DNA of 64,000 bases from an uncultured Desulfovibrionaceae bacterium. Lineage in GTDB: Bacteria; Desulfobacterota; Desulfovibrionia; Desulfovibrionales; Desulfovibrionaceae. Below are positions 18,615-59,039 of the stretch, piece by piece (position 1 is the first letter of the stretch; each line of letters begins with the position of its first letter). Where the stretch lies: positions 434,001 through 498,000 of the forward strand of contig CALUZB010000004.1 of assembly GCA_944325195.1 (NCBI GenBank), given 5' to 3'. The notes under the pieces are model-generated. The model saw only the letters and a list, made by a program, of their open reading frames with translations, was not told the DNA's origin and searched no databases. The position numbers and the translations under genes were made by a program.

Positions 18615-19769
18615 TCAATACCCGGCAACCTGATTGGGGAAGTAGTCCTCACAACCGCCCTCACGGTAAATATCCAAGGTGGTGCAGTGCAAGGCGCCGC
18701 CCAATGGGATTACTTTGTCGTAGGGAATAGGATCAACTTCAATCCCCATACTGTCGATCTGGTCGCAAAGAGGCTTTTCGCTGGCCAAGGCGAAGATTGT
18801 TTTGGGATCAAAGTTAAGCACATTCATTGATACCCATGAAGTCTGCCCGTAAGCTGCCAGCAGATAACACTTGTTTTGATAAACAGCTACAGGCCCCACC
18901 GCAGGAATCATTTCCCAATCATTGATTTTTACCAGTTCCCAGAATTCCGGCGTAATGATCATCCAATCGGGATTGTAAAGCATACGGCCCGGGCCGAGAA
19001 TATTGAAATTGCCGTCGATGTGCCAAGGCAAAGTGTTGTTATCTACCTGAACATGGTGCAGGCGCAGACCTTGGCTCTTATAAAAACGCCTCAACCATTC
19101 CACACCGCTTCTGTTACTTACAGTTGATATCTGGTGAAATACGTCTTTACCGAAACGATAAACATCAGCGGCATCCCAAAGCGGCTCTTTTTCAGTAAGC
19201 TGGAACTCACCGCGGCGGGAGCGGGCCAGTTTTTCTTCATCACTCCAGACATTGTTGTAGTTATACCAGAAATCTTTTACATAAGACTCGTCAGTAAGGC
19301 GCGGTTTGGGCGCAGACATCCAAAGCATGTCCGGGTCTTCCTGATAGAACTTCTCCCAAAAACCACGGAGATTAAGATATTCATACCAACGGGAGCGGCG
19401 CACAGTGGTAGCCTCAATAACCATATTGCCGTGTACCAGAGTCACATCGCGCACATTGTTGACGCCATGGCAATTAAGCTGAGTCCAATCCGGGGTGGAC
19501 ACCGGCTTGTTCAGCATGAACGGTTCAATGTTGATACGTTCTACTTTAGCGCCCCGCTTCTCCATGCGCTTTTGAAAGTAATCCATCTGCTCGTTCGCCT
19601 GATCAATCATTTCCTGAGGGAAGGGTCCATATTGAGGAAGAGGATAAGCGCCGGGCAGGTCATATTCCCATGCCGGTTCAGGCGCAGGAATATTGGTTCC
19701 TTCCGGCCGCCCCATAATTACATGCTTCAGCGGATCCCATTCATTCCAACTATTAATGATTTTAGCCAT
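18615..19769 (-). CDS. glycine amidinotransferase-like enzyme, copy 1
   Basis: 384 aa, cytosolic pentein-fold enzyme of the L-arginine:glycine/inosamine amidinotransferase family. By alignment to human GATM, the catalytic set is present: Asp199 (WDAAD), His250 (PWHIDG) and Cys362 (GGALHCTTLD). Known members move the amidino group of arginine to an amine and release ornithine. Divergent from a TolB-like/TPR regulator gene across a 408-bp gap. It has two paralogues in this window (25019-26200 and 56304-57450), all ending in an EDYFPNQ motif. The acceptor is unknown; glycine should not be assumed. Start has a TTTTTCCTCC-complement Shine-Dalgarno. Confidence 0.88.
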   Translation of the reverse strand: MAKIINSWNEWDPLKHVIMGRPEGTNIPAPEPAWEYDLPGAYPLPQYGPFPQEMIDQANEQMDYFQKRMEKRGAKVERINIEPFMLNKPVSTPDWTQLNCHGVNNVRDVTLVHGNMVIEATTVRRSRWYEYLNLRGFWEKFYQEDPDMLWMSAPKPRLTDESYVKDFWYNYNNVWSDEEKLARSRRGEFQLTEKEPLWDAADVYRFGKDVFHQISTVSNRSGVEWLRRFYKSQGLRLHHVQVDNNTLPWHIDGNFNILGPGRMLYNPDWMIITPEFWELVKINDWEMIPAVGPVAVYQNKCYLLAAYGQTSWVSMNVLNFDPKTIFALASEKPLCDQIDSMGIEVDPIPYDKVIPLGGALHCTTLDIYREGGCEDYFPNQVAGY

Positions 19770-20177
19770 TTTTTCCTCCAGTCGGGCAGGTTCAGCCCAT
19801 TGCGTTTAAACTTCCCGAAAAATACGGGATTTCATGTCTGCAATTTAACCGGAATTTTCAGCCGGGGTAGTAAGTTACTGTTGGGGATACAGGTTAGGAA
19901 TGGGCGGGTAATTTACTGTAAAATTTGTATCGAGGCTTACCTTTACAGTTAAAAGGCCTTATACTATCTTCATCAGAAGTTTATTTGTGGTTTTAATCAC
20001 CTTGTAAAGATGAAAAGAAATTAACAAGCCGACAAAACAGATGAAATCGTTCTCCATAACTCCTCACTAAAGGCGAGGGACGATCCGTATGCTCCCTGCC
20101 TGCCAACGACAGAATCCATATGCGGCTAGACTGATTGAGGGTTGAAACATAAAAATTTATGAATAGGCACCCTTAAC
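19770..20177. promoter_or_regulatory. divergent control region of amidinotransferase 1 and its regulator
   Basis: 408 bp without a gene. Two related A+T-rich palindromic sites, TTTACTGTAAA (19912-19922) and TTTACAGTTAAA (19942-19953), are spaced 30 bp apart, about three helical turns. They could be operators. The same half-sites occur upstream of the symporter gene (24711-24717, 24757-24763). Confidence 0.35.
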
Positions 20178-21821
20178 ATGATTGAATCCCCCCAGAACCA
20201 CCCGACACCCGAGCAGATACGAGCTCAGCTTGCATGTATGCTGGACAGTGAAGATTTTGCTGTTCCTGAAAGGCTCAAGGCTTTTCTCTCATTTGTTGTG
20301 CAGGAAACGCTCGCCGGAAATGCAGCCAACATTAAAGCCTACACTATAGCGATAACCGCTTTCGGCAGACGGCATGATTTTGACCCGCAGCTTGACCCGA
20401 TTGTCAGAATTGAAGCGGGTAAATTGCGGAAGGCTCTGGAGTTGTACTTTTATACCCACCCTGAAGATGAGGTCGTAATTTTGATCCCCAAAGGCACATA
20501 TGTGCCGGTTTTCAGTTATGCCAAGCGCCATAGTGAACAGCCGAATCCGCCCTCGGCACAAACTCTCACCCCTCCATTAAGGGAGATGCAATTCAATACC
20601 AACGCGGCCCGCCCCGATGCTGCTTTGGAACGGGAGGAAAGGCCGACTTTAATGCTGCTTCCTTTCAGTATGCAGGGAGAAAATAAAGAATTAGCTGATT
20701 TCCTGGAGGGTTTGAATGATACCTTGTTCGCCCAAACCCAAGACAATGAACTTGTTCATGTTATGGAAATGCCTCAACGCGGGCTGAATATCAATCATAT
20801 AGATGTGGTCAGATTTGCCAAGGAGCAGGGCGTGCGTTTTGTGTTGCATGGTCAGGCTCAATCCAGTGCAAATCAAATCCGGTTATATGTTGCTTTGACC
20901 GATACCCAAAAAGGCTTCAGAATCTGGACTGAAAAATATGACTGCCAGTTTTATCCGGACACTTCCCTGAACCTGCAGGATCAAATCGCCCGAAATATTT
21001 TAATAACCATTTTGGATAGCGTAGGGGTCATTACCCGCACACTGGTCCAGGAGACAAGCTATTTACCACCCGATGAACTGGGAGTATTTGAATCGACTCT
21101 CCGGTATATGGAATGGGTTACATCGCTAGACAGGGACAATTACACCAAGGCGAAATACGCCCTGGAGTTGAATATGGTCAAAGATCCGCACAATCCGATC
21201 ATTCTTTCCCAATTGTCCGATATCTATTCTTCTGATTATCAATTTGCGTTCAATCAAATTGACAACAACCTGGATAGGGCACTTGAGCTGGCCAAACAGG
21301 CGTTGATGACTGACCCGAATTGCCACATGGCGAAACTGGCAAAAGGCCTGTACTTATATCTGGTCAGAGACAAGCAGCAATTGGAGCTTCTGCTCAAGGA
21401 TTTCCTCTGCCGGGGCAACGTCAAACCATATGCTCAAGGCTTTGTCGCTTTTCTTCTCGGCATGGCTGTGGATCTTACAGAGGGGAAAAAGCTTGCTGAA
21501 AGCGCAATAGGGCTTAATCCTTATCAACCCGGCTGCTACAATGTAGTGCCGTTCATATATCACTTCGTGAACAGAGACTACGATGAGGCATTGCACTACG
21601 CGCACCGGCTCAATATCCCTTCCTGCATCTGGGAATCAATGATTATGACCGCCGCCTATACAGCCACCGGGAACACATCTGAAGCGACCAGAGCATTAAA
21701 ACGCCTGCTTACCCTGGAACCGGACTTTAATCTTAAAAGAAAACAACTGTTGTATGGATTATTTTTCGACGATAAGAAAGCATCGCTGATTGACGATGCC
21801 CTGAAAAAGGCTGGATTATGA
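20178..21821 (+). CDS. TolB-like/TPR regulator-like protein, copy 1
   Basis: 547 aa, no signal peptide or membrane helix. Residues ~10-115 form a conserved block (IRAQLACMLDSEDF ... FLSFVV ... IKAYTIAI ... FDPQLDPIVRIEAGKLRKALE ... IPKGTYVPVF). This block is known from otherwise uncharacterised proteins that join it to TolB-N-like and TPR regions; a DNA-binding role is plausible but unproven. A TolB N-terminal-like alpha/beta domain follows (~155-290), then helical TPR-like repeats to the end. Divergent from amidinotransferase 1, with a paralogue at 26387 in the same arrangement. Probably a sensor or regulator of the neighbouring enzyme. Confidence 0.7.
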   Translation: MIESPQNHPTPEQIRAQLACMLDSEDFAVPERLKAFLSFVVQETLAGNAANIKAYTIAITAFGRRHDFDPQLDPIVRIEAGKLRKALELYFYTHPEDEVVILIPKGTYVPVFSYAKRHSEQPNPPSAQTLTPPLREMQFNTNAARPDAALEREERPTLMLLPFSMQGENKELADFLEGLNDTLFAQTQDNELVHVMEMPQRGLNINHIDVVRFAKEQGVRFVLHGQAQSSANQIRLYVALTDTQKGFRIWTEKYDCQFYPDTSLNLQDQIARNILITILDSVGVITRTLVQETSYLPPDELGVFESTLRYMEWVTSLDRDNYTKAKYALELNMVKDPHNPIILSQLSDIYSSDYQFAFNQIDNNLDRALELAKQALMTDPNCHMAKLAKGLYLYLVRDKQQLELLLKDFLCRGNVKPYAQGFVAFLLGMAVDLTEGKKLAESAIGLNPYQPGCYNVVPFIYHFVNRDYDEALHYAHRLNIPSCIWESMIMTAAYTATGNTSEATRALKRLLTLEPDFNLKRKQLLYGLFFDDKKASLIDDALKKAGL

Positions 21822-21845
21822 GAGGTACCGCGTACAGTACCTCTC
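21820..21845 (+). terminator. stem-loop at the 3' end of regulator 1
   Basis: GAGAGGTAC (21820-21828) and GTACCTCTC (21837-21845), perfect 9 bp, overlapping the stop codon. No T tract, so termination is uncertain. Confidence 0.45.
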
Positions 21846-21870
21846 AAGTACAACATTTAAAGCTCCGAAT

Positions 21871-21904
21871 AAAGCCGCCCTGCAATCGTTTGGCAGAGCG
21901 GTTT
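21871..21904 (-). terminator. probable terminator of the EamA transporter gene
   Basis: AAAGCCGCCCTGC (21871-21883) with GCAGAGCGGTTT (21893-21904), near-perfect. On the minus strand the stem ends in CTTTATT. Lies 31 nt beyond the EamA stop. Confidence 0.6.
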
Positions 21905-21934
21905 AAAATGCTTCGGAAGGTAAAAAACCACGTT

Positions 21935-22888
21935 TTACTTCTGGAAACGCTGGCTTAAAATTACCGCGCCCAGAACCAGAGCGCAGGCAACCCATTGCAG
22001 GGGCAACATGCTTTCGCCCAACAGCAACATACTTAAAATTATCCCAAAAATCGGAATAAGGTTCAGAAACGATGAAAAGCGCGGCACAGGGATACGCGCC
22101 AGGGCATAAGCGGAACAACCCTGCGCGCCGACAGTTATGCAGATGCCCAGATATAAAACCGCAATAAAAGGCTCCCAGGCAAACCGGCTCGGCAGCTCAA
22201 CTGCATCCAAACCAAGCATGGGCAAAAAAATGGCGCTGGCAATCAAACTCTGGAACCAAAGTACCAAAGGGACAGGATAACGCCCACGTAAAAAACGTAA
22301 AATCACTACAAACCCGGCCCCGCCACACAACGAGCACACTTCAAAAATATTGCCCAGCACAGGATTTGGAGCAGACTCACTGACTCCGCCCGCTGCGGTG
22401 AGTAAAACCACTCCCCCCATAGCTGCAAGAAAACAAAGCAAAACCCCGGGAGTGGTCTTTTCCTTAAGAATCAGCCAGCCGGCCATCGTGCTGATAAGCG
22501 GATTCAATGCCCAAACCATACTGGCCTGAGAGGCGGAGGTATATTTCAAAGCCATTGCTTCAAAGGCGAAAAAGGTCACAGGATCGCACAAGCTGAGTAA
22601 AACCAGCAAGCCAAGATCTCGTCTGGAATAAATTTTGATAGGACAGAATGCAACTAAAATAAAAGGGGTCAACACTAAAGCGGCAAGCAGCATGCGCATA
22701 CAGACCAGAAACAGCGGGTGATATTCAGTTACCGCTATTTTCCCAACCGCCATGCCGCTGCCCCACAGCACGCAGCCTACTATCATTACTATAACAGCAA
22801 GCCTGGTTCCCTGCTCAGGACTGCCCGGAGCAGTTTGCACTGCTGCCCCCGGCAAAGCTGATGCTTCTTCTGAATAATTATTGTCCAT
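21935..22888 (-). CDS. EamA/DMT-family transporter
   Basis: 317 aa with about ten hydrophobic helices arranged as two EamA repeats (first from ~30, second from ~170). These proteins export or import small metabolites, often amino acids or their derivatives. I start it at 22888 (AGGAAG site); the longer frame from 22975 adds 29 residues without a ribosome site. It lies between the two amidinotransferase modules and 34-120 nt from the symporter gene on the same strand. It is a candidate exporter of a guanidino product or of ornithine, by context only. Confidence 0.85.
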   Translation of the reverse strand: MDNNYSEEASALPGAAVQTAPGSPEQGTRLAVIVMIVGCVLWGSGMAVGKIAVTEYHPLFLVCMRMLLAALVLTPFILVAFCPIKIYSRRDLGLLVLLSLCDPVTFFAFEAMALKYTSASQASMVWALNPLISTMAGWLILKEKTTPGVLLCFLAAMGGVVLLTAAGGVSESAPNPVLGNIFEVCSLCGGAGFVVILRFLRGRYPVPLVLWFQSLIASAIFLPMLGLDAVELPSRFAWEPFIAVLYLGICITVGAQGCSAYALARIPVPRFSSFLNLIPIFGIILSMLLLGESMLPLQWVACALVLGAVILSQRFQK

Positions 22889-23010
22889 AAATTCTTCCTT
22901 GAGTGATTTTTGAGCAATCTGTTCAATGGCGGGGGGAGATCGCTCTGCCGCCCCGCCTATCAATGTTCCTTGCACACTGCCGGATTAACGCAACCTTCTA
23001 CTATTCAGTA

Positions 23011-24536
23011 TCAGCCATGATTGGGAAGCGGCAGAGGCGGACAACTCTTTTGGGTAACTGCAGAAACCGCAACCGTTACAATCAAACAGATAAGTGGTGC
23101 TCCAAGAGTGAAATAATACCAATGCTCAGGGTACGCCAACGCCTGCAAGGTAAAGCTTCCGCCATCGACAGCTCCGCCGATCACCCGGAATGCCATTCCG
23201 GCAATCATCCCACATACGGCTCCGGTGCTGTTCGCTTTTTTCCAGAACAGGCCAAGAGTGACCGTGATGGACAGAGCCGCCAGCAGCAGGTCAAAGCCCA
23301 GGGCACACAACTCCATGGCATCAGGAAAGCTGATGGCAATCACCGTTCCGATAACCCCGATAATCAACACAACAATCCGGGTTACAAGCACCTGTTCCTT
23401 TTCACTTGCAGCGGGCTTGAAAATATCCCGGTAAATATTCATGGAAACAACTCCGGCGAGAGCCAGTGAAGCTGTGGCGGCCGCGGACATCACCGCAGAC
23501 ATGCCCGCCCCCAAAAAGAGAATGAGCAGGGGCAGCGGCAGAATGGTTTTACTCATCACCGGCAAAATCAGTTCAGGATCGCCGGCTATACCCGCAGCCT
23601 CATTGCCCAGCAGGTGAGGATCGTCAATCATGCCGTTGCCCACCATGATCACCCCGCACAAAGCGGCGATGGTTACCAACACTACAAAAATGAAAAACAC
23701 CGCCGCGGCACAGAAGGCCGAGGCCCGGGCTGTATTGGCGGTTTTGGCGGAAAAGGCGCGCTGCATCAGGTCTGGGCTGGCCACATTGCCCAGGGTCATG
23801 ACCGCAAGAGCCGCCAACCAGGCGATCCAGTGTACGCCGGGAGTGCCTTCAGCCGGGAAAATCCTAATCAGTTCCGGATCATAGCTCGCACAGAACGCTT
23901 CCCAGCCCCCTACAGCGCTGACGGCAAACGGCACCAGCGCCAGAAGACCGGCTAGAGTGATGGCCACCTGGATAATATCGGTAAAACATACGGCAAACAG
24001 CCCACCAAGCACAGTGTAGGAACAGATGACCACCATGCCCACAATAATGGAAGTCATAAGCTCCCAGCCGATCAGGGCATTAACAATTTTTCCGAATACC
24101 AGGATTTGCACGGAAACCCAGAGAATAAAGATAAAGGACATAAGAAGCGTGGCAGTAATGCCGGCTTTGCGCCCGAAACGGGTATAGAAAAAGTCCCCCA
24201 ATGAAATGAACTTACAGCGCCACATTCTGGCAAGATAGAAGCTGCCCGCAATAAGCAGACAGAGGAAGCCCCCCCCACGGTAATGAAGGCACCACCGCTC
24301 AGATAGGTATCGTCCCAGATACCGACTGAGTAAATCCGGCCGGGAACGGCAATGAGCAAAGCCCCACCGATAAAACAGGCCATCAGCGTGGCTGAGTTGA
24401 AAAACAAACCGAAACTGCGACCCGCAACCAGGTAATCTTCTGAAGTTTTAATTCTGTTTTTCACCAAATACCCCACGAGGATCATACACCCCATGTAAGC
24501 CGCTAACCCTAAGCCGTACAATAAATTTTGACTCAT
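23011..24536 (-). pseudogene. sodium:solute symporter interrupted at a G8 tract
   Basis: SSS-family transporter split in two frames. The first ~86 codons (MSQNLLYGLGLAAYMGCMIL ... DDTYLSGGAFITVG) run into a C8 tract at 24269-24276 (G8 on the coding strand). The remaining ~415 codons continue in another frame (GFLCLLIAGSFYLARMWR ...). One added G, or loss of two, restores a ~505-residue protein with the usual ~13 helices. It may be a phase-variable gene, a real inactivation or a sequence error. Neighbours suggest uptake of an amino acid, guanidino compound or osmolyte. Confidence 0.8.
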
Positions 24537-25018
24537 GCTTAACTCCCTTTTTATGCAGATTCCTGCTCAGAGCCCACACTTGAAGCAAACACCGCCGTCC
24601 GGCGAACTTCATTCAGCTGCGCGATCACCGGATCCGCAGATTAGATTTGATTGAAGAACTCCCAAGCTCGACAGGAGCAGGAGTGCCCAAAACCCCAAGG
24701 TTAGGGAATTTTTACAGAGAAATTATAGTTTTAAAGAGGTATATTGCCGTATATAACTGTAAAAGATGCCGAATATATTTTTGAGGTTATCCGGACACTG
24801 CATCTCTTCCAGAAAAACACCACATCCCCTTATTTCCCGGTCTTTTTCCTCAAACCTGGCTCACCAGTTAGGTTTATTGCCCCGGCAGATGAGTCGCAAA
24901 GTCATGCGCCTGGGCGTGGGCAAAGTAATGATTCACTTACAAACCCTTGTTGGGGAATGCCTGCATGACAGCTTCGCCGCCAGTCAAGCAAGCATTCCCA
25001 ACGTATTGTTCTTAAGGC
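24537..25018. other. promoter region of the symporter gene
   Basis: About 480 bp between symporter and amidinotransferase 2, both on the minus strand. TTTACAG (24711-24717) and CTGTAAA (24757-24763) form half-sites matching those upstream of amidinotransferase 1. Otherwise no ORF with a ribosome site was seen. Confidence 0.35.
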
Positions 25019-26200
25019 TTATTGATTGGGGAAATAATCTTCCAACGTGCTTTCACGATAGATGTCCAAGGTGGTACAATGCAGTTCGCCGCCGAAAGGC
25101 GCTACCTGATCATAAGGTACCGGCACTACCTCGATGCCCATCTTGTCAAGCTGTTCCATATAGGCTGTTTCATGAGCTTCCACGCAAATCGTGTTGGGTC
25201 CCAGCGAAAGGGTGTTCATACTGAGCAGACTGGTGCCGTGCAGCCCGCCGGCGGAGGTGCAGATCAGAGACAACGGATGATTATATACATGCGTCGGACC
25301 GGCATCCACAACAATTTCCCAGTCGTTTTTCTTAAACAGATCGATGATGTTTTCGCTTAAGATCGGACAATTACGGTTGGTTATCAGCAGGCCGGGGCGC
25401 ACCATGGTGAACTGCCCGTCAATGTGCCAGGGCTTGAAGTTGCCTTCCGAGCCGCCGATGCGATGATCGAACAGCACAGGGTGAACACGAATGCCCTTTT
25501 CCGCATAGTGTCGGGTTACCCAGTCCACGCCGGCCCGGTTGCATACAGCGCTGATATGCCAGAACAAATCCTTGCCGGCACGGGCACAGTCGGCCCCATC
25601 CCAAAGCGGCTCTTCTTCGGTGAGTTGAAAATTCCAGTCCAGAACGCTCTGTTCCTTCTCCTCTTTAGTCCAGACATGCTCGCTGATATAATCCCAATTG
25701 CGCACATAGCTTTTTTCAGTAAGACGCGGCTTGGGAGCAGCGGCCCAAAGGAATTCGGGATCTTCTCTGAAGTAGCGCTGGAACAGGGGACGCAGGTTGA
25801 GATACTCATACCAACGGGAGCGGTGGCAACCGGCAGTTTCAATGATTTCATTGCCGACTACCAGGAATACGTCGCGCGGACAGGCAATACCGCGCATGTT
25901 CAGTTGGGTCCAGTCAGGGGTGGACACAGGGATAGGCTGCATCATCACCGGATGCACATCCACCCGGTCAACCACAATACCGCGTTTTTCCAACATCTTC
26001 ACAAAGGCGGTCATCTGCTCATCAGCTTTTTCCACCATTTCTTCCGGGAACATGCCCCAGGTGCCCAGCGGGAATCCACCTTTAGGGGCGGGGTATTGCC
26101 AGTTGGGCTCCGGTGCGGGGAGCTGGGTGCCCTGAACCCGACCCACAATTGTACGCTTGAGAGGTGACCATTCATCCCAGGAATTGACTATCTTAGACAT
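25019..26200 (-). CDS. glycine amidinotransferase-like enzyme, copy 2
   Basis: 393 aa, paralogue of the enzyme at 18615. Catalytic residues are conserved as Asp201 (WDGAD), His259 (PWHIDG) and Cys375 (GGELHCTTLD), so it should be active. I start at ATG 26200, which has AGGAGTG 5 nt upstream and gives MSKIVNSWDEW, matching the other copies. A longer frame to 26311 lacks a ribosome site. An insertion of a few residues before His (~247-255) distinguishes it from copy 1, so acceptor preference may differ. Divergent from the second TolB-like/TPR regulator. Confidence 0.88.
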   Translation of the reverse strand: MSKIVNSWDEWSPLKRTIVGRVQGTQLPAPEPNWQYPAPKGGFPLGTWGMFPEEMVEKADEQMTAFVKMLEKRGIVVDRVDVHPVMMQPIPVSTPDWTQLNMRGIACPRDVFLVVGNEIIETAGCHRSRWYEYLNLRPLFQRYFREDPEFLWAAAPKPRLTEKSYVRNWDYISEHVWTKEEKEQSVLDWNFQLTEEEPLWDGADCARAGKDLFWHISAVCNRAGVDWVTRHYAEKGIRVHPVLFDHRIGGSEGNFKPWHIDGQFTMVRPGLLITNRNCPILSENIIDLFKKNDWEIVVDAGPTHVYNHPLSLICTSAGGLHGTSLLSMNTLSLGPNTICVEAHETAYMEQLDKMGIEVVPVPYDQVAPFGGELHCTTLDIYRESTLEDYFPNQ

Positions 26201-26386
26201 CTTGCACTCCTTAACATTGAGGTTGAATACGCCTGATAAATTGATTAACTTGAATTCAGGCCGGGACCACTCCGATTGAGTGCAATATTGCCGTTCTTTT
26301 GCGTTGAACAAGAGTGTTTAACGGTATGATACAACTTCTACAGCAGAAATACTCTTATACTCGTATTCCTGGCTACGGGGGAAAAG

Positions 26387-27982
26387 ATGGTGGGACGAAA
26401 CAAATCACCGGGCAATCTTCCTGAGAATATCTCACCGGAAGAAATCAGGGCACAACTGGAAGATATCCTTAAAAGCAAAGACTTTGTGGCTTCGCAAAGA
26501 CTTATGGACTTTCTGTCGTATGTGGTAGAACAGAGCCTGCAGGGCAACGGCGAAACCATTAAGGCATACAATATCGCTGTTGATGTTTTCGGGATGGGCA
26601 CAGAATTCGATCCCCTGATCAACCCGCTTGTGCGCACGGAAGCAGTCAGGCTGCGCAGCAAGCTTGAACATTATTACCTGTGCAATCCTACAGCCGCTAT
26701 CCAGATCAACATTCCAAAAGGCGGCTATGTCCCTATTTTCACCCGCCCTGCCGAAACGAGAGAAACCGTTCTTAAGGACGGGAACACGCTGGAGTTGCAT
26801 ACAATCATTCTTGTCTGCCCTTTTGAAAACATCAACTCAACTAGAGAGGGTGACAGCTTCAATTCCGGTTTAGTTAATGAAATCACCAACTTTCTTGCCA
26901 AATTCAGAAACCTGACGGTGATCGTGCAGGAGCCGGCTCATGACGCTGAATACCATGCCGGTACAGAGGCATCGTGCAATCCGTCGGCACGGTTTATCCT
27001 GAAAGGCAGTTTGCAGACGCACAAAAAGAAATTCAAACTATGGGTTCAGCTTATAGATTCTCAAAATAACAGGAAAATATGGGCGGAAAGCTTTAACGGC
27101 GATTTCAGACATGATGCCTTTGAAGCGCAGGAAATTATTGCTGAAAAAATCGTATATCAGATTGCAGCAAACTTCGGCATCATGGAGCAGATCTTGTTGA
27201 AGGAAGCTGACCATAGACGAATGCCCGGTCTTAAAAAAGCCCTGCTGCTTTATCATTGCTGGCTGAACAGACTTTTCGTCAGTGATTTTAAACAGGCGCT
27301 TATCGCATTGCAACAGACCCTGCAGAATGAGGGAGAGAACCCTTCCGTGCTTGGCATGTTGGCTGATTTGTATGCGACAAACTACCAACTCGGTTATGGA
27401 ATTGTTAAAAATGCCCTGGATCCGTCTTTACAAATGGCTATCAAGGCGGCCAATCTTGATCCGGAATGCCAGGTTGCCCACCGGGCCTTAGCATTCAACT
27501 ATTTTCTGAGGGGAGACAAAGCCAGGTTCTTAATCTTCGCTAAGCGCACTCTGGAAATCAACCCCATAAGCAGCGGTGCAATAACTAACCTGGCGTCGTG
27601 GTACGGCATGTTGGGATATTGGGATGAATGCCTGGAATTGAGCAAACGGGTGTTCCGGCTCAACCCCGCCTCACCCGGCTGGTGCCATGCAGCGTTGGCT
27701 TTCTACCATTATTACCGCGAAGATTATGAAAAGGCTTTGCTGATTGCCCAAAAAATCAATATGCCACAAATGTTCTGGGACCCTTTATTCAGGCTGATCG
27801 CCGCCGCACAGTTACGTAAAGTTGACGAATGCAAAGAAGCTTACTCCGGTTTGACTGAATTGTTCCCCAACTTTGAAAAAGATAAAAAACTGCTTATTTC
27901 CCGCTCAATTCCCAATCCGGAATATGCGGGCATTGTCAATAAAGGTCTGGATGTATATAAGTCTCTGATGGAGCATACCTGA
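26387..27982 (+). CDS. TolB-like/TPR regulator-like protein, copy 2
   Basis: 531 aa, same three-part plan as the protein at 20178. An N-terminal block (~17-115: IRAQLEDILKSKDF ... FLSYVV ... IKAYNIAV ... FDPLINPLVRTEAVRLRSKLE ... IPKGGYVPIF) is followed by a TolB-N-like domain (~140-275) and C-terminal TPR-like helices. No membrane anchor. GGGGGAAAAG precedes the ATG. Divergent from amidinotransferase 2 across 186 bp, repeating the copy 1 arrangement. The repeat of gene order implies duplication of the enzyme-regulator pair as a unit. Confidence 0.7.
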   Translation: MVGRNKSPGNLPENISPEEIRAQLEDILKSKDFVASQRLMDFLSYVVEQSLQGNGETIKAYNIAVDVFGMGTEFDPLINPLVRTEAVRLRSKLEHYYLCNPTAAIQINIPKGGYVPIFTRPAETRETVLKDGNTLELHTIILVCPFENINSTREGDSFNSGLVNEITNFLAKFRNLTVIVQEPAHDAEYHAGTEASCNPSARFILKGSLQTHKKKFKLWVQLIDSQNNRKIWAESFNGDFRHDAFEAQEIIAEKIVYQIAANFGIMEQILLKEADHRRMPGLKKALLLYHCWLNRLFVSDFKQALIALQQTLQNEGENPSVLGMLADLYATNYQLGYGIVKNALDPSLQMAIKAANLDPECQVAHRALAFNYFLRGDKARFLIFAKRTLEINPISSGAITNLASWYGMLGYWDECLELSKRVFRLNPASPGWCHAALAFYHYYREDYEKALLIAQKINMPQMFWDPLFRLIAAAQLRKVDECKEAYSGLTELFPNFEKDKKLLISRSIPNPEYAGIVNKGLDVYKSLMEHT

Positions 27983-28127
27983 AACAAGCAAACGCCATTC
28001 ACCCTCAGGTAATGCGTAAACTTGACTTTCAGTATTTTCAAGAATATTTGCAGCTATGCAATCTCCCGCATACCGAAGAAATCTTCCTTGCATACTTGCA
28101 TTGTTGCCATATTCCAGAGAGGTGCCG

Positions 28128-29378
28128 ATGTTTTTTCGTATGGATCAACTGTTGCTCAGTTTTTCATTAGGTCTGGATTTTGTAGAGGGCGAAATTTTCG
28201 GGGCCACCACAAACCACGGCAAGCGTGTTGCTGTTTTAACTGCTGCAATGGGACAACTTGCAGGCTGGAATGACGACCAAGTTATTACTGCGGCGGCCTG
28301 TGCTCTTCTCCACGACAACGCGCTCAGCGAAGCCTCAATCGAGAGGGTGCCCGGAGCAAAAGTAACCGCTGCCGCCTTGGCCGCACATTGCACAGAGGGA
28401 GAGAAGAACGCAGCGCATTTACCGTTTCCTTCAGAAATGAAAGACATTATCCTGTACCACCACGAATACATGGATGGGTCCGGCCCGTTTGGCATGAATG
28501 CGGAAAACACACCCCTTGGGGCACAGTTCATTGCCATTGCAGATAACCTGGATATCAGATATAAAATCCAAAGTCAGCCGGCATCGGCTTTATCACAACT
28601 ACGGGAAGAGATAAAACGGAAAAGAGGGGTCTATTACACAGCCGACGCAGCCGATGCTCTGCTGGAAATCTTAGATGAAAACCTGCTTATTTCTCTTACG
28701 GACGAACGGATAGGCCAATCTTATGCCCAGGCTATTCCCCAATGGAAGGTGGAGATCCAGACTGAGGCAATGATGGGCATAGCCGAAGTGGCGGCTCGAA
28801 TTATTGACTATAAATCCAAGTTCACGGCAAAACACTCCACACAGATAGCCAATCGTGCTTTCTGGATGTGCCGGTTTTACGGATTTGACCCGCAAACCTG
28901 TACTAAGGTATATCTGGCCGCAGCCCTGCATGATCTCGGCAAACTGATGACGCCGACAGCTATTCTCGAAAAACCCGGCAGACTCACTGATGAAGAGTTT
29001 GAAATAATCAAACAGCACGTTCACTGGAGCTACATCATGCTTAAAGATGTGGAAGGCCTTGCTGAAATATGCCGCTGGGCTGTATCACATCACCGCAAGT
29101 TGACCGGCAGTGGCTATCCTGACCTTCCGGCAGAATATCTGGAACTGGATTTTGTCAGCCGACTGCTGACCTGTATCGACATCTATCAGGCCGTGCGGGA
29201 AACACGCCCGTATCATCCGGGACGTTCTCATTCTGAAACCATGCGCATCCTGTGGGATATGGCAAACAGAGGCGAAATTGATAAACAAATCACACAAGAT
29301 CTGGACAGTGAAATGGCGCGTTTCCCAGATGGCGACGGAGATGTTCCCAATCCGGCGGAACAAGACGCGTTTATCTGA
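28128..29378 (+). CDS. tandem HD-GYP-type phosphohydrolase
   Basis: 416 aa, soluble. The first half has HD-type marks (LLHDNA and HHEYMDGSGPFG, so GPF in place of GYP). The second half is a complete HD-GYP-like domain: HSTQIANRAF, ALHDLGK, HVHWSY and HHRKLTGSGYP. Such domains hydrolyse cyclic di-GMP or related dinucleotides. No receiver or membrane domain is attached, so regulation is unclear. Start at 28128 for the GAGAGG site; an upstream frame from 28056 lacks one. Lies 146 nt after regulator 2 on the same strand. Confidence 0.85.
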   Translation: MFFRMDQLLLSFSLGLDFVEGEIFGATTNHGKRVAVLTAAMGQLAGWNDDQVITAAACALLHDNALSEASIERVPGAKVTAAALAAHCTEGEKNAAHLPFPSEMKDIILYHHEYMDGSGPFGMNAENTPLGAQFIAIADNLDIRYKIQSQPASALSQLREEIKRKRGVYYTADAADALLEILDENLLISLTDERIGQSYAQAIPQWKVEIQTEAMMGIAEVAARIIDYKSKFTAKHSTQIANRAFWMCRFYGFDPQTCTKVYLAAALHDLGKLMTPTAILEKPGRLTDEEFEIIKQHVHWSYIMLKDVEGLAEICRWAVSHHRKLTGSGYPDLPAEYLELDFVSRLLTCIDIYQAVRETRPYHPGRSHSETMRILWDMANRGEIDKQITQDLDSEMARFPDGDGDVPNPAEQDAFI

Positions 29379-29598: not shown

Positions 29599-32493
29599 CT
29601 AAATCAGCTCCCAACGAATTACAAACAAGTCTTCCTCTTCCGCTTCCACAGACAGCCGCGCTTCTGTTTCATCCAGCAAGGCGTCTTTCTGGCGTTCCAC
29701 CTCCCTGACTGCCTGGTCATATTCATGCCAAAGCTCATCGCGCTTTTGCTGCAGGTTGAGCACTTCCTTCTGTAAACGCACTTTATCCTGCAGGTTGCCG
29801 GAAAAGCGGGAAATACGTTTCAACTCCTTAATTTCCTCATCTGTTTCACTTAAGGCCAGTTTCAAACTGGAACGAGCATCTTCCACCCAATGGTCAAGCT
29901 TTTCCATCTCTTCCTCAAAGTAGCGGCTGTTGCGAGCTTCCTGATCCTTCAGAATTTTGGTCTGCATCTCCTCAAAGAACGGTTTAAACACAGCTGAGGA
30001 AAGCTGGGAAAATTCATATGAGGCGCAAACATTGGCACCAAGATCAAACAACCGTTTTATCTGCTCCGGATCTAAAAGTACGCCCTGATCGGTCTGGCCT
30101 GCAAACAGGAGATGATCTTCCACATCCAGAGAGACGGTTGAAAAGCGTCTCACCGCCAAAAAACCGCTTTGCCCCCTAAGCGCCGCTAAAATACTGATGT
30201 TTTTCCCTGACGCTGTTAAGTTGAATTGGAGATGCGCCACCCCTAAAGAAAGAGCCCGGCACTGCTCAATCAGCTTTTGGGCAAGAGGGTGCTGGGAGTG
30301 GTAGTGGTGAGCGTCGTTAACAGGCTTAAGCGTGTAAATCCCGGCTGGAATGGACTTATCAAAGGGTGTAAGCAGATTAAAATTGAGGGCTGCATCATCG
30401 AAAAAGGCCGTGCCAAGGGGCAATGCATACTTGGTAAGTTCCCATAAAAGCACTTCGAGTCGATGCAAAGACTGGGTGGCTTCCGCTTTATATACCTGTA
30501 GTTTTTCCGCCACTTCCGAGTCGAAATTCGCAAGCAGTTTTTGTTTGGCTTGATACAATCCCTCTTCAATTTCCTCCGACAGTGAAGCCTGCAACTCATC
30601 GAAAGAGGCTTCTATTTCCTCTGTAGTGCGGCAACTTTGATAAATTTCTGCAATCCGCCGTTCAAAATCAACGCCGGACTCAATACTACCCAGCACCTCG
30701 TCACTTGCTCCAAATACACCGTCAAACAATTGAAACTTTTCAGACAGTATCTCAAACACACGCTGGTCGGCCGCGTTATTCCGGTTGAGAAAGTTGACCA
30801 CCACCACGTCGTGCTTTTGCCCATAACGATGACAGCGCCCGATGCGCTGCTCGATGCGTTGCGGGTTCCAAGGCAGGTCATAATTGATGACCAGAGAGCA
30901 GAACTGCAGGTTTATGCCCTCGGAAGCGGCTTCCGTGGCTATCATGATGTTGGCCTGATCTCGAAACTCCTCTACCAATGCGGCACGCATATCTACATCT
31001 TTACTGCCGGTAATTCTGTCACTGCCTTTATGCCGTTCAAGCCATCGACGGTATATTCCCTTGGCCCGCTTATCGTCGTTTGTGCCGTTGAATAACAGGG
31101 TTTGCCCTGCATAACCGTTTTCTATAAGCAATTCATAAAGATAGGCTTGGGTGCGTCTTGATTCAGTGAAAATAACAGCTTTAGGGTTGCCGCCAAGGTT
31201 TACAATCATTTTCAGGCCGGTGCGCAGGGCTTGCAACAAAGCGGAGCCTTTAGCGTTCTTCTGAATGCCCTCAGCCATGGTAAGCATACGCTGCAACAGA
31301 TAACGTTCTTCCCGAATAGCCTCTTCGTCTTCCGGCATATGCCTGCTCAAGCCCGGGGTACCGTAAGTTGCAACTTCTTCCTCCGCAAAATCTCCGCCGA
31401 CCTCAAAGTCATTACAAATCTTCTCTGCGTATACGTCCGGCTTGGCTGCTTCATTCCACTCAGACCATTCCGAATAGTTATGCAAAATAAAGTCTAAACG
31501 GTCGAGCATGGTGCGTAAAGCCCCCGCAATTGCATAGGAAGAGGAGGCCAGCAATTTGCGAAGCACTAAAATAACCAGATGGTTAGGTCCGTTTGATAAT
31601 GCCCAGATTTTATTGCGCTGCAAATAGTCACTCATTATCTGATAAAGTTCTTGCTCGGCCTGGCTCAGGGTAAAATCCTGGGTATATGCGCGACGGTCGG
31701 TATACCGTACGTATTCCAATACCTGGCGGCGCAAGGTGCGCTTACATAAAGGAGCCAGCCGTTCTTTCAGTTCGGCAAGGGCTTTTTTGCTTGGTCTTGA
31801 GTATTTTGTCCGGAAACTTTTGATATCACTGAAAACATGCTCATCAATAAAGCTTACCAACCCATAAAGCTCAAGCAAAGTATTTTGAATAGGAGTTGCG
31901 GTAAGCAGCAGCTTAGGAGCATGGGAGAGCGCGCGCTTCAAGTCTTTTGCAGTGCTTTTGCCGGATTTATACACATTGCGCAGGCGGTGGGCTTCGTCAA
32001 TTACTGCCAAATCCCAGTCCACCTGCCTCAACAAGTCGGCATATTTTCTGGCAAATGTATAAGAAGTAATAACTATGATTTCAGATTTAAACGGGTTTGA
32101 ATGCCCCGCCTTTTGCAGAGTATCAAACAGTTTGCGTTCAAGAATTACCGACGGCAGCGCAAACTTTTCCCAAAGTTCCTGATTCCACTGCGTGCGCAAT
32201 GAAGCCGGAACAACGATTAAAATAGTACGCTTGCGCTCGGCCCACTTTTGAGCAAGCACTATCCCCGCTTCAATGGTCTTACCCAAACCGACTTCATCAG
32301 CCAGGATAGCCCCCCGCGATAAAGGAGAATGAAAAGCGAACAAAGCCGCGTCAATTTGATGCGGGTTCAAATCCACCTTTGAACCCATGAGCGCGGGCAT
32401 AAGCCCTTTCATATCGCAGGTGGGATAACGCCTGGAAAGCTCCACTGCATATAACTTGGCGTGGTACGAAGTATATCCGTAAATCTGATCCAT
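29599..32493 (-). CDS. SNF2-family DEAD/DEAH-box helicase
   Basis: 964 aa. Helicase domain 1 (~45-230) has DEVGLGKTIEAG (Walker A), the DEAH box in VIDEAHRLRN and LTATPIQN. Helicase domain 2 has FTESRRTQAYLYELL, TEAASEGINLQF and QRIGRCHRYGQ (~555-590). The last ~350 residues contain long charged coiled coil (~850-940). Relatives act on protein-DNA or RNA polymerase complexes (RapA-like) or serve in phage-defence operons. Here it is alone, without a methyltransferase, nuclease or other defence partner, so a defence role is not supported by context. Confidence 0.9.
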   Translation of the reverse strand: MDQIYGYTSYHAKLYAVELSRRYPTCDMKGLMPALMGSKVDLNPHQIDAALFAFHSPLSRGAILADEVGLGKTIEAGIVLAQKWAERKRTILIVVPASLRTQWNQELWEKFALPSVILERKLFDTLQKAGHSNPFKSEIIVITSYTFARKYADLLRQVDWDLAVIDEAHRLRNVYKSGKSTAKDLKRALSHAPKLLLTATPIQNTLLELYGLVSFIDEHVFSDIKSFRTKYSRPSKKALAELKERLAPLCKRTLRRQVLEYVRYTDRRAYTQDFTLSQAEQELYQIMSDYLQRNKIWALSNGPNHLVILVLRKLLASSSYAIAGALRTMLDRLDFILHNYSEWSEWNEAAKPDVYAEKICNDFEVGGDFAEEEVATYGTPGLSRHMPEDEEAIREERYLLQRMLTMAEGIQKNAKGSALLQALRTGLKMIVNLGGNPKAVIFTESRRTQAYLYELLIENGYAGQTLLFNGTNDDKRAKGIYRRWLERHKGSDRITGSKDVDMRAALVEEFRDQANIMIATEAASEGINLQFCSLVINYDLPWNPQRIEQRIGRCHRYGQKHDVVVVNFLNRNNAADQRVFEILSEKFQLFDGVFGASDEVLGSIESGVDFERRIAEIYQSCRTTEEIEASFDELQASLSEEIEEGLYQAKQKLLANFDSEVAEKLQVYKAEATQSLHRLEVLLWELTKYALPLGTAFFDDAALNFNLLTPFDKSIPAGIYTLKPVNDAHHYHSQHPLAQKLIEQCRALSLGVAHLQFNLTASGKNISILAALRGQSGFLAVRRFSTVSLDVEDHLLFAGQTDQGVLLDPEQIKRLFDLGANVCASYEFSQLSSAVFKPFFEEMQTKILKDQEARNSRYFEEEMEKLDHWVEDARSSLKLALSETDEEIKELKRISRFSGNLQDKVRLQKEVLNLQQKRDELWHEYDQAVREVERQKDALLDETEARLSVEAEEEDLFVIRWELI

Positions 32494-56303: not shown

Positions 56304-57450
56304 ATGGCTAGAATCGTTAACAGCTGGAATGAGTGGGATCCTTTGAAGAGAGTGATACTGGGCAGCCCCGTGGGAACCTGCAACCCCAAACCGGATCTTT
56401 CATGGAATAACACTACGAAAACATATCCTGACTATTTTGGCCCTCTTCCCCAGGAAATGCAGGATATTGCTGTGGATGAGATGAATGCGTTTCAGAATGC
56501 AATGGAAAAGAGAGGAATTAAGGTTGATCGGCCGAAGGTTATCAATACCTTACAGCGTACCTCCACTCCTGACTGGGAATGTGAATTCATGAGGGGCTGC
56601 CAACCGCCCAGAGACGTCTTTTTGTGTGTCGGGAATGTTATTCTGGAATCGCCGATGGCACTGCGCTCTCGCTGGTATGAATATCTTCATTTCCGGGACA
56701 TTCTGGAAGAGTATTTCCGTGAAGACCCGGATTTCATGTGGATCTCAGCGCCCCGCCCCAGACTGTCGGATGCCTCTTTCAAACAGGGTTTTTGGGAAAG
56801 TTTCTATAATATCTGGACTGAGGAGGACAAGCAGCAGCGCGCTTTAGCCCAGAACTGGCATTTGACCGAAAAAGAACCACTGTTTGACGCCGCAGATGGT
56901 TTGCGATTCGGAAAAGATATTTTCTGGCAGCCTTCCGTCGTAACCAACAAATCCGGTTTTGACTGGATAACCCGCTATCTCCGCAGCCTAGGATTCAGGG
57001 TGCATGAGGCCCGTTTCCAAGAAAAAAGGCGGAATGCCCTGGCATCTGGACGGCTTACTCATGCCGTTGCGCCCCGGCTTATGTATGTATTGCCCCGATG
57101 ACCCGTTCCTGGTTCCGAATATGGCGGAATTATTCAGAATCAATAGTTGGGAGTTAGTGCCCGCCGCCAGACCCGTATATGATGTCAACATCACCATTGG
57201 GGCGCTGGGGGAACGCCACGGTCCAAGCTGGCTTTCCGCCAATACGCTTTCTTTAGACCCGAAGACAATCTGCGTTGAATTTAACGAAACCGGCTACATG
57301 GAACAGCTTAACAGTTTAGGTTTTGAAGTCATTCCCCTGCATTATGCTTCCACCTTGGCTTTTGGCGGTTCGTTCCATTGCTCCACGGTTGATGTGCATC
57401 GTGAAGGCGTCTGTGAAGACTACTTCCCCAACCAGATTCCCGGCTATTAA
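56304..57450 (+). pseudogene. glycine amidinotransferase-like enzyme, copy 3, frameshifted
   Basis: Two overlapping frames together encode a 381-residue paralogue of the enzymes at 18615 and 25019. The first frame runs to 57101. The second carries on from an A6 tract at 57022-57027; dropping one A joins EARFQEK to GGMPWHLDG. The joined protein keeps Asp195 (FDAAD), His247 (PWHLDG) and Cys359 (GGSFHCSTVD). The break falls just before the catalytic His, so the unshifted product cannot work. It may be a pseudogene, a slippage-dependent gene or a sequence error. AAGGAG lies upstream of the start. Confidence 0.85.
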
Positions 57451-57611: not shown

Positions 57612-59039
57612 ATGGATAAAACTCCTTCTAAAAAAGTGGTATTACCGCTTTATATGTTGGTTTGTCTGGTGGTTAGCAGCGTAATCGGCGGGGGGATATA
57701 CGCCTTGCCCCAAAATATGGCCTTGGTCTCCGGAGGGGCCGGAATGCTCATATCATGGCTCATCACCGGTGTCGGGATGACCTTTCTGGCGGTTACGTTT
57801 CTCAAGCTGAGCGTTCGCAGGCCCGACGTCGATACCGGAATGTACGGCTACGTTCAAATGGCGTTCGGAGACTACCCCGCGTTTTTCACCCTGTGGGGAC
57901 TGTGGAATCTCTACTGGATAGCCAACGCCGGCCTGATAGTGCTGATTTTCAGTGCTCTTGGAGAATTACCCGGTATGGAGATGTTCAAGGACGGCCTCAC
58001 CACGGAGGCGATTATCGGCGAGGTGATCGTGGCCTTTCTCCTGGCGGCGCTCTTTGAGGCCGGGTTCAAGACGGCGGCCATATTCAACGCCGTGATGACC
58101 GTGATTAAAATTCTGCCTCTGCTCCTGTTCGCGATTTTCGCCGCTCTGGCATTTCAGGCGGACACCTTCAGTTTTGAATTCTACGGCAGTGTGGAGCTTG
58201 GCTCCACGCTGGATCAGGTAACAAACTGCATGCTTTACACCGCCTGGCTCTACACGGGATTTGACGCGGCAATCACCTTCGGCTCGCGGGGAGAAAGCCC
58301 CCGTGAAAGCGGAAAGGCTACGGTTATCGGATTCATTCTAATCACGGCAATTTATATCGCGACCTGCGTTCTCGCCTTCGGTGTGGTGCCCAGGGACGAG
58401 CTGGCCCGGATGAGCAATCCATCCATGGCGGGAATTATGCGGGCGGCAGCGGGGCCGTGGGCAAGCAATTTCATCAATATCGCGATGATAATTTCGGTAT
58501 TTGGCTGCCTGTTTGCATGCACCATGACAATGTCCGAATACCTATATAATATGGGGCGCGGCGACAGGCCTACCGGACCGCGCGTTTTTTCAAAACTAAG
58601 CTCCCGCGCCGTACCCTCGGCGTCTCTGTGGCTGGCAACTGTGCTTACCGCTGCGATTCTGATATATTCGGGCGTTACCGGAGCGGGATATAACGAACTT
58701 ATTCTGCTGTGTACGTCCTTGGCGCTTATCCCTTATTTTCTTTCTTCCCTGGCAGCCGTTAAAGACAGCATGGCGGACGGGAAGATTCTGCCGGGCTGGT
58801 TCTGTATCGCGACTGTGGCGGCCATATACTCGCTGTGGCTGATTTATGCCGGGGGGCTCAAATATCTGCTGTTGTCGGCCATTCCTTACAGTGTCGGCAT
58901 CTTCTTCTTCGCATACTCACGCAAGGAGCGGGGTTTGAAAGTATTCATGAATAAAAAGGAAGCGCTTGTCGCCTGCCTGATTATCGCCGCGGCCGTATTC
59001 GCCGGGTGCCAGATGGCTGCCGGCAGACTGACCTTATAG
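57612..59039 (+). CDS. APC-family basic amino acid antiporter (ArcD-like)
   Basis: 475 aa with ~12-13 hydrophobic helices. The opening LVVSSVIGGGIYALPQNMA and the TGFDAAITFGSRG block match arginine/ornithine or lysine antiporters of the APA branch. AAAGGTG precedes the ATG. It lies 161 nt after amidinotransferase 3 on the same strand. An arginine-in/ornithine-out exchange would match the substrate and by-product of an amidinotransferase. Parts of the gene (about 57900-58200) are visibly richer in G+C third positions than the neighbours, hinting at separate acquisition. Confidence 0.85.
   Translation: MDKTPSKKVVLPLYMLVCLVVSSVIGGGIYALPQNMALVSGGAGMLISWLITGVGMTFLAVTFLKLSVRRPDVDTGMYGYVQMAFGDYPAFFTLWGLWNLYWIANAGLIVLIFSALGELPGMEMFKDGLTTEAIIGEVIVAFLLAALFEAGFKTAAIFNAVMTVIKILPLLLFAIFAALAFQADTFSFEFYGSVELGSTLDQVTNCMLYTAWLYTGFDAAITFGSRGESPRESGKATVIGFILITAIYIATCVLAFGVVPRDELARMSNPSMAGIMRAAAGPWASNFINIAMIISVFGCLFACTMTMSEYLYNMGRGDRPTGPRVFSKLSSRAVPSASLWLATVLTAAILIYSGVTGAGYNELILLCTSLALIPYFLSSLAAVKDSMADGKILPGWFCIATVAAIYSLWLIYAGGLKYLLLSAIPYSVGIFFFAYSRKERGLKVFMNKKEALVACLIIAAAVFAGCQMAAGRLTL

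What the first reader, a model, noticed from the sequence alone, without database searches (positions are those of the whole stretch)
18615..27982. Duplicated amidinotransferase-regulator module flanking two transporters
Two glycine-amidinotransferase-like enzymes (18615-19769, 25019-26200) each sit divergent from a paralogous TolB-like/TPR regulator (20178-21821, 26387-27982). An EamA transporter and an SSS symporter lie between the two pairs. Gene order and orientation repeat exactly, so the pair was duplicated as a unit. Family knowledge: such enzymes transfer the amidino group of arginine to an amine and release ornithine, making compounds such as guanidinoacetate or toxin precursors. Inference: this is a dedicated guanidino-compound system with import and export. 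I know of no described system with this regulator.
Basis: partly seen in the sequence, partly recalled or inferred. Interest (0 to 1): 0.85.

Follow-up and report, generated by a model that had tools for sequence, protein, structure and literature searches.

The report
Gut bacterium's many amidinotransferase cassettes
A small-genome gut bacterium carries about sixteen related enzymes that move the amidino group of arginine-like compounds, most paired with their own regulator and transporter, which looks like a toolkit for using many guanidino compounds such as creatine, although no activity has been tested.

Summary
The 2.48 Mb Desulfovibrionaceae genome carries 16 genes of this amidinotransferase (AT) family (15 intact, one broken) plus two contig-end scraps, and 13 copies of the regulator; 12 of 13 lie within 3.5 kb of an AT. 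Both families occur in 2 of 59 related genomes searched: the two members of this genus. The two window pairs are not copies of each other: AT1 groups with Chloroflexota and Desulfobacterales enzymes, AT2 with a genus-only clade. AT and regulator trees still agree in four subfamilies. By order and strand, both transporters belong to the AT2 operon. Elsewhere, relatives sit in arginine-deiminase operons (ADI-OTC-CK-AT-EamA, 5 of 5 loci of two actinomycete families) or beside a cyclic-2,3-DPG-synthetase-like P-loop protein (10 of 77 loci). The genome has that protein, carbamate kinase and OTC on one contig but no recognisable ADI. Best reading: parallel import modules exchanging amidino groups with the ornithine/arginine pool, probably catabolic. 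Direction, substrates and DNA binding are untested.

The parts
18615..19769 (-). AT1, amidinotransferase of the AGAT family; subfamily shared with Chloroflexota and Desulfobacterales, then Aminicenantes and Acidobacteriota
19770..20177 (.). divergent intergenic region AT1/REG1; holds the palindrome TTTACTGTAAA (19912) and, 30 bases on, a one-mismatch copy
20178..21821 (+). REG1, paralogous regulator without a transmembrane segment (unclassified N-terminal domain, weak TPR C-terminus)
21935..22975 (-). EamA (DMT) transporter, third gene of the putative AT2 operon
23011..24536 (-). SSS sodium:solute symporter, second gene of the putative AT2 operon, in two overlapping frames (broken or mis-assembled)
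25019..26200 (-). AT2, amidinotransferase of a genus-only subfamily; 94% identical to the enzyme of the second species (L108)
26387..27982 (+). REG2, paralogous regulator; 57% identical to the regulator beside the 94%-identical AT of the second species; AlphaFold model's best PDB match is the CadC periplasmic domain
56304..57450 (+). third AT copy of the window, broken over two frames
57612..59039 (+). APC permease next to the broken AT, resembling arginine-ornithine antiporters (383 bits, cut-off 591) and basic amino acid/polyamine antiporters (384 bits, cut-off 409); both below cut-off

Best explanation
Each module is a separately regulated guanidino-compound utilisation locus. A dedicated importer (mostly an SSS symporter, sometimes MFS or APC) brings in one guanidino compound. 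The amidinotransferase, by a conserved Cys-His-Asp mechanism, moves its amidino group between that compound and the ornithine/arginine pool, and in several modules an EamA carrier removes the product amine. One shared core (OTC, carbamate kinase and a cyclic-2,3-DPG-synthetase-like P-loop protein, on one contig) would then draw energy or nitrogen from arginine/citrulline and return ornithine as the reusable amidino acceptor. A CadC-like one-component regulator, usually divergent from the operon, would sense the compound. Shown: family membership, conserved catalytic residues, copy number, pairing, genus restriction among the relatives searched, tree agreement, genomic link to OTC/CK/ADI/DPGS-like genes. 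Inferred: substrates, direction, transport direction, operon structure, DNA binding, the step that takes arginine to citrulline without ADI, and that the core serves all the modules.
For: 16 AT genes in 15 loci of a 2.48 Mb genome and 13 regulators, 12 of 13 within 3.5 kb of an AT. The five residues aligned with human AGAT D170, D254, H303, D305, C407 are invariant in 15 of 15 intact copies. An inner-membrane transporter lies in the gene set of 12 of the 15 AT loci; a porin follows the AT of a 13th; window AT1 and L017 have none. A creatininase over its curated cut-off (274 against 235 bits) lies two genes after one AT. An ArcD-like permease, below cut-off, follows the broken AT. In 5 of 5 Actinomycetaceae/Dermatophilaceae loci the AT follows ADI-OTC-CK and precedes an EamA gene. 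A DPGS-like gene lies within 4 kb of the AT in 10 of 77 loci outside the genus, five of them with OTC and/or CK as well; none of the 77 has both DPGS-like and ADI. G000 has CK, DPGS-like, argB and OTC on contig C17, and its DPGS-like protein groups with four AT-linked ones to the exclusion of 32 others (SH-aLRT 100). A regulator relative in Azospirillum brasilense lies 1.8 kb from arcD-ADI on the opposite strand, one small ORF between. A published proteome lists ArcA, ArcB, ArcC and an AT at consecutive loci 01647-01650, each more than 8-fold higher in urinary-catheter biofilm than in vitro (PMC6314084, passages read).
Against: No activity or substrate is known. ADI is not found in either genome of the genus (no PF02274 match over cut-off), so arginine to citrulline is unexplained. 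G001, 91% complete, shows no carbamate kinase, and whether it has the DPGS-like protein was not searched beyond its 16 fetched AT regions, which hold neither. The core is not linked to the modules in G000, and its CK does not group with the AT-linked CKs. G336 has a DPGS-like gene about 8 kb from an AT that falls outside the AT-linked clade. EamA carriers commonly export (recalled), and prokaryotic ATs are said mainly to serve antibiotic and toxin production (PMC2242806, passages), so the reverse direction is possible. 62 of 77 loci outside the genus show neither DPGS-like nor ADI within 4 kb, though several end near the AT. No creatininase was found in the 16 fetched AT regions of the second species.
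Confidence: 0.5

Rival explanations
1. Biosynthetic direction: the ATs use arginine to guanidinylate imported or internal amines, release ornithine, and EamA exports the guanidino product (osmolyte, signal, detoxified amine or natural product).
For: AGAT, SxtG, HsvA and StrB1 are the closest solved relatives (their biosynthetic roles recalled). EamA commonly exports (recalled); an ArcD-like permease beside one AT could exchange arginine for ornithine; a lone regulator is divergent from a PotABCD-like polyamine transporter.
Against: No NRPS or PKS domain among the neighbours of the modules that I scanned (not every neighbour was scanned); one 2,202-aa neighbour is a GH94-type glycan enzyme. Recurrent partners in other phyla are OTC, CK and ADI. 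A creatininase acts on a ready-made guanidino ring (recalled).
Confidence: 0.25
2. Some of these proteins, above all the AT1 subfamily, act as hydrolases in the slot of arginine deiminase (arginine or another guanidino compound to ureido product, or to ornithine plus urea), and 'transferase' is only the family name.
For: AT1-type genes lie with DPGS-like and CK genes (L031 also OTC) in three Chloroflexota MAGs with no ADI match (L025, L026, L031); a fourth, L029, has no ADI match either but none of these genes in its 9 kb. G000 lacks ADI too. The wider guanidino-modifying superfamily holds both hydrolases and transferases (recalled).
Against: In actinomycetes AT and ADI stand side by side, so AT does not replace ADI there. 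Sequence similarity is to transferases; ADI-profile matches of the ATs stay below cut-off in G000 and G001. 30 Desulfobacterota genomes with the DPGS-like protein show no full-length ADI match (7 of 30 short matches) and nearly all lack ATs of this family, so an ADI-less setting does not need AT.
Confidence: 0.15
3. The expansion is mainly selfish or decaying: modules spread by transfer and duplication with few still in use.
For: One AT, one SSS and one regulator are broken in G000, one AT is broken in G001; contig ends cut further copies.
Against: 15 of 16 ATs are intact with all five catalytic-site residues, and eight AT pairs between the two species are kept with end branches of 0.00-0.07 while paralogs are 43-71% identical to AT1.
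Confidence: 0.1

Closest known systems
L-arginine:glycine amidinotransferase (AGAT/GATM) and SxtG, HsvA, StrB1 (PDB 1jdx, 6u1r, 5wpi, 1bwd)
   Same: Homologous over nearly the whole length; catalytic Cys, His and three Asp conserved in 15 of 15.
   Different: Human M302 beside the catalytic His is Trp in 13 of 15, Ile and Thr in the other two; N300 is not conserved; the loop before it is longer in most paralogs, so the second substrate may well not be glycine. No Pfam family matches at E 0.001 for either window AT, and no NCBIfam family.
Arginine deiminase (arc) operon ADI-OTC-CK-ArcD
   Same: OTC and CK are present in G000; in two actinomycete families the AT is a further gene of this operon.
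   Different: This genus has no recognisable ADI; G000 has a DPGS-like P-loop protein next to CK; ATs are many and unlinked to the core.
CadC/HilA type one-component regulators
   Same: Best fold match of the REG2 model is the CadC periplasmic domain (3ly7, E 5e-6); weak HilA match, 20 bits against a cut-off of 589.
   Different: No transmembrane helix seen; N-terminal domain not in Pfam, only 1 of 12 gives a weak Trans_reg_C hit (E 0.054).
Rhizobial/Azospirillum TPR proteins annotated 'adenylate cyclase' or 'tetratricopeptide repeat protein'
   Same: 27-31% identity over 86-96% of REG2 in the 12 rows listed, of 544 plasmid records with a match.
   Different: Not beside ATs in the two annotated regions read; one is opposite arcD-ADI (a third region had no annotation).
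Polysaccharide utilisation loci of Bacteroidetes (recalled, as an analogy)
   Same: Many parallel substrate loci, each with importer, enzyme and sensor.
   Different: Different proteins and chemistry throughout.

Membership tests
AGAT-type amidinotransferases | Full-length homology to solved amidinotransferases | tested here: met
   E 4e-84 to 1jdx with the 15-row profile, profile positions 5-387 of 390
AGAT-type amidinotransferases | Catalytic Asp254, His303, Cys407 and guanidinium-binding Asp170, Asp305 (roles recalled) | tested here: met
   Invariant in 15 of 15
AGAT-type amidinotransferases | Glycine-side residues N300 and M302 of the human enzyme (roles recalled) | tested here: not met
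   M302 is W in 13, I and T in one each; N300 variable. SxtG has Leu at M302 in the alignment, so this bears on the substrate, not on the family
AGAT-type amidinotransferases | Amidino transfer with arginine/ornithine as partner | not testable with these tools
   needs purified enzyme
Arginine deiminase operon | Arginine deiminase | tested here: not met
   PF02274: no match over cut-off in G000 or G001; the same search rings in 3 of 14 control genomes
Arginine deiminase operon | OTC and carbamate kinase | tested here: met
   G000 contig C17, over curated cut-offs; G001 shows one OTC and no carbamate kinase
CadC-type regulators | OmpR-like winged-helix DNA-binding domain | tested here: inconclusive
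   1 of 12 weak Trans_reg_C hit; no PDB match of note; model confidence low there
CadC-type regulators | Single transmembrane segment | tested here: not met
   highest 19-residue Kyte-Doolittle mean 1.65 among 19 regulators
CadC-type regulators | TolB-like plus TPR-like sensor fold | tested here: inconclusive
   3ly7 is the top PDB match with probability 1.00, but rmsd 17.7 and TM 0.43; most other top matches are TPR proteins
Direct duplication of one window pair from the other | AT1/AT2 and REG1/REG2 are each other's nearest relatives | tested here: not met

The most novel reading that the evidence does not exclude
An ornithine-carried 'amidino harvesting' metabolism: about sixteen amidinotransferases of different specificity strip amidino groups from host and dietary guanidino compounds (creatine from creatinine, guanidinoacetate, taurocyamine, guanidinobutyrate and the like), load them on ornithine, and a shared OTC/carbamate kinase core with a DPGS-like P-loop protein standing in for arginine deiminase turns the amidino carbon into ATP, ammonia and CO2 while ornithine is recycled.
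Probability: 0.25. Interest if true: 0.85.

Novelty: new variant of a known kind. Interest (0 to 1): 0.64.

Why it matters
Amidinotransferases are mostly known as single biosynthetic enzymes (recalled; PMC2242806 says so for prokaryotes, passages). A gut lineage with some sixteen, most with their own sensor and importer, suggests that guanidino compounds, which matter in kidney disease, creatine supplementation and ruminant nutrition, are a nutrient with a specialised consumer. It also gives a ready panel of paralogs for learning how this fold chooses its second substrate, and points to an uncharacterised P-loop family tied to carbamate kinase in genomes without a recognisable arginine deiminase.

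Tried and rejected
Direct duplication of the window pair: rejected by the trees. Toxin-precursor pathway: no supporting neighbour seen among those scanned. Carbamate kinase as a tracker of the ATs: its tree does not group the AT-linked copies. Regulator motif: no 7- to 9-mer beyond shuffles. One spaced palindrome, TTTACNGTAAA, has 6 exact sites in 419 kb of distinct fetched sequence of the two species (one search counts 438 kb with overlaps): four in the 20 intergenic regions (5.9 kb), one upstream of a further AT (L112) and one inside the broken regulator of L020. It was picked after the fact from thousands of dyads (shuffle best 3, observed 4) and touches 4 of 20 regions, so it is a lead only. 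Regulator N-terminal domain: no PDB or Pfam family. DPGS-like protein with carbamate kinase in print: no paper for those two terms. Paper searches; from titles and abstract starts, none listed describes such an expansion, but only open-licence papers are held. PMC2242806, PMC10215027 and PMC6314084: passages only.

Selections before counts: AT tree used 15 of 19 G000 matches (the two halves of the broken copy and two contig-end scraps left out), 11 of 17 G001 matches, 26 of 77 loci outside the genus and 3 of G336's ATs. REG tree used 12 of 13 G000 and 7 of 12 G001 regulators. For tandem ATs one was paired with the regulator. DPGS tree used 37 sequences, four of the ten AT-linked ones outside the genus among them; 8 of 40 regions gave no DPGS ORF by my caller, reason not examined. 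The 80 loci are the best of 326 ranked by likeness to AT1, so the sample outside the genus is biased towards AT1.
Full report
Observation. AT1 and AT2 are amidinotransferases by homology to human AGAT, SxtG, HsvA and StrB1, with the catalytic Cys, His and Asp residues invariant in 15 of 15 intact paralogs. No Pfam or NCBIfam model matches the two window ATs at E 0.001. EamA and SSS are clear, but the SSS is split over two frames.

Genome-wide picture. A search of the window's own genome gave 19 matches to AT1, which resolve into 15 intact genes, one broken gene (two matches, window 56304-57450) and two scraps at contig ends. The 16 genes form 15 loci, one being a tandem pair. The regulator has 13 copies, one of them broken in two. 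At 3.5 kb, 12 of 13 regulators lie near an AT and 13 of 16 ATs near a regulator; at 1 kb, 7 of 13. The exceptions are informative: the lone regulator, sister to REG1 (95/93), is divergent from a PotABCD-like polyamine transporter (PotA over its cut-off, PotB and PotD below); one AT without it has a PAS-LuxR regulator and an SSS in its own gene run, one is followed by a porin, and the broken one by an ArcD-like permease.

Module layout in G000. Most are REG divergent from a run of AT with transporter, in the direction of reading: AT-SSS-EamA (window AT2), AT-SSS (L009), SSS-AT-AT (L010), SSS-EamA-AT (L013), SSS-AT-EamA-EamA (L014), SSS-EamA-AT-REG in one direction (L015), AT-EamA-creatininase (L016), AT alone (window AT1, L017), MFS-AT and AT-MFS (L018), SSS-AT (L020, regulator broken). 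The corresponding AT2 run in the second species has the same order AT-SSS-EamA (L108). Several gaps are a few hundred bases, so co-transcription is inferred, not shown.

Host and spread. Three loci found by name belong to 'Desulfovibrionaceae bacterium isolate RGIG1962', goat caecum, and are identical to contigs of G001, the congener. AT profile: 2 of 59 relatives, the genus itself; regulator domain: the same 2 of 59. In 395 genomes of the phylum, 12 have any AT-profile match, six of them strong and near full length, G000 included; one other genome (G336) has three; at most four candidates per genome were scored in that search, so its count may be low. Relatives of the regulator are in 544 plasmid records, mostly of rhizobia. 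That both parts were acquired and then multiplied in this genus is inferred from this.

History. In the AT tree AT1 with L009 and L111 joins Chloroflexota and Desulfobacterales enzymes (98), AT2 lies in a genus-only clade of ten (100), and two further ATs (L019, L020) join the SAR11/actinomycete side (100). So there were at least two, probably three, AT lineages. The regulator tree shows four groups matching the AT groups, with L018a and L018b discordant and long-branched. Distance matrices correlate over 18 pairs (r 0.57, permutation p 5e-5, the floor of the test), but the second species' pairs carry much of this: within G000 alone r is 0.34, p 0.048, 11 pairs. The regulators change far faster: AT2 and its counterpart in L108 are 94% identical, their regulators 57%.

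Pathway context. The 80 loci were the best of 326 confirmed; three are of RGIG1962, leaving 77 outside the genus. Loci of 5 of 5 Actinomycetaceae/Dermatophilaceae have ADI, OTC, CK, AT and EamA together, in that order; 10 of 77 have a DPGS-like gene within 4 kb; none has both; 37 of 41 SAR11 loci have EamA and 12 a creatinase/M24-family gene nearby; 62 of 77 have neither ADI nor DPGS-like. L031 (Chloroflexota) shows OTC, DPGS-like, AT, SSS, CK in a row with OTC inverted; L024 (Desulfobacterales) agmatinase, sigma-54 regulator, OTC, CK, DPGS-like, AT. G000 has CK, DPGS-like, argB and OTC on contig C17. In 395 genomes of the phylum the DPGS-like protein is in 75, and in none of the 16 other family members listed; in 40 fetched regions CK is present in 22, an ornithine cyclodeaminase family in 12 and a class III aminotransferase family in 12, the last two named from one representative each. 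Seven of 30 such genomes had short PF02274 matches in open frames of 254-405 aa, including two of G336's ATs; none looked like a full arginine deiminase, which is my reading of the coverage. Of seven AT-bearing genomes outside the genus, four (Chloroflexota) had no match and three had some, one of them strong (G455, 143 bits).

Regulator. The REG2 model (4 sequences, mean pLDDT 73, N-terminal part weak) has the CadC periplasmic domain as top PDB match, with large rmsd, but no transmembrane segment is seen in 19 regulators. DNA binding is inferred.

Direction. I favour catabolism because of CK, ADI and OTC neighbours, creatininase, importers, and the published urinary-biofilm proteome where ArcA-ArcB-ArcC-AT are all up more than 8-fold; its authors proposed a polyketide pathway instead (PMC6314084, passages). 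The biosynthetic direction remains open.

Changes at checking. Mended against the calls: 16 genes in 15 loci; eight, not seven, kept AT pairs between the species; three, not four, Chloroflexota loci with DPGS-like and CK but no ADI; the CadC sensor fold moved to inconclusive. Two checks were added: a long neighbour is a glycan enzyme, not a synthase of natural products, and the second species' fetched AT regions hold no creatininase.

Noticed in passing
window 41493-41688 (-): Cobalamin riboswitch, 74.7 bits against a gathering score of 31.5.
   Followed up: no
window 29599-32493 (-): 964-aa ORF that looks by eye like a SNF2/HepA-type helicase, beside a protein with two HD-domain stretches (28056-29378).
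   Followed up: no
L122:6117-7463: Cyclic-2,3-DPG-synthetase-like protein with no NCBIfam family; its relatives neighbour carbamate kinase in many Desulfobacterota; function unknown, possibly tied to ornithine/citrulline catabolism.
   Followed up: partly
L066, L080, L087, L090, L102: Actinomycete arc operons that carry an amidinotransferase and an EamA carrier after carbamate kinase.
   Followed up: partly
SAR11 loci, e.g. L055, L058: Amidinotransferase beside EamA (37 of 41) and, in 12 of 41, a creatinase/M24-family gene: possible guanidino-compound use in the open ocean.
   Followed up: partly
window 26387-27982 against L108:6626-8239: Regulators diverge far faster (57% identity) than the enzymes they flank (94%) between the two species.
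   Followed up: no
L020:12392-18997: ORF of at least 2,202 aa after one AT with GH94 supersandwich and glucoamylase-like domains.
   Followed up: no
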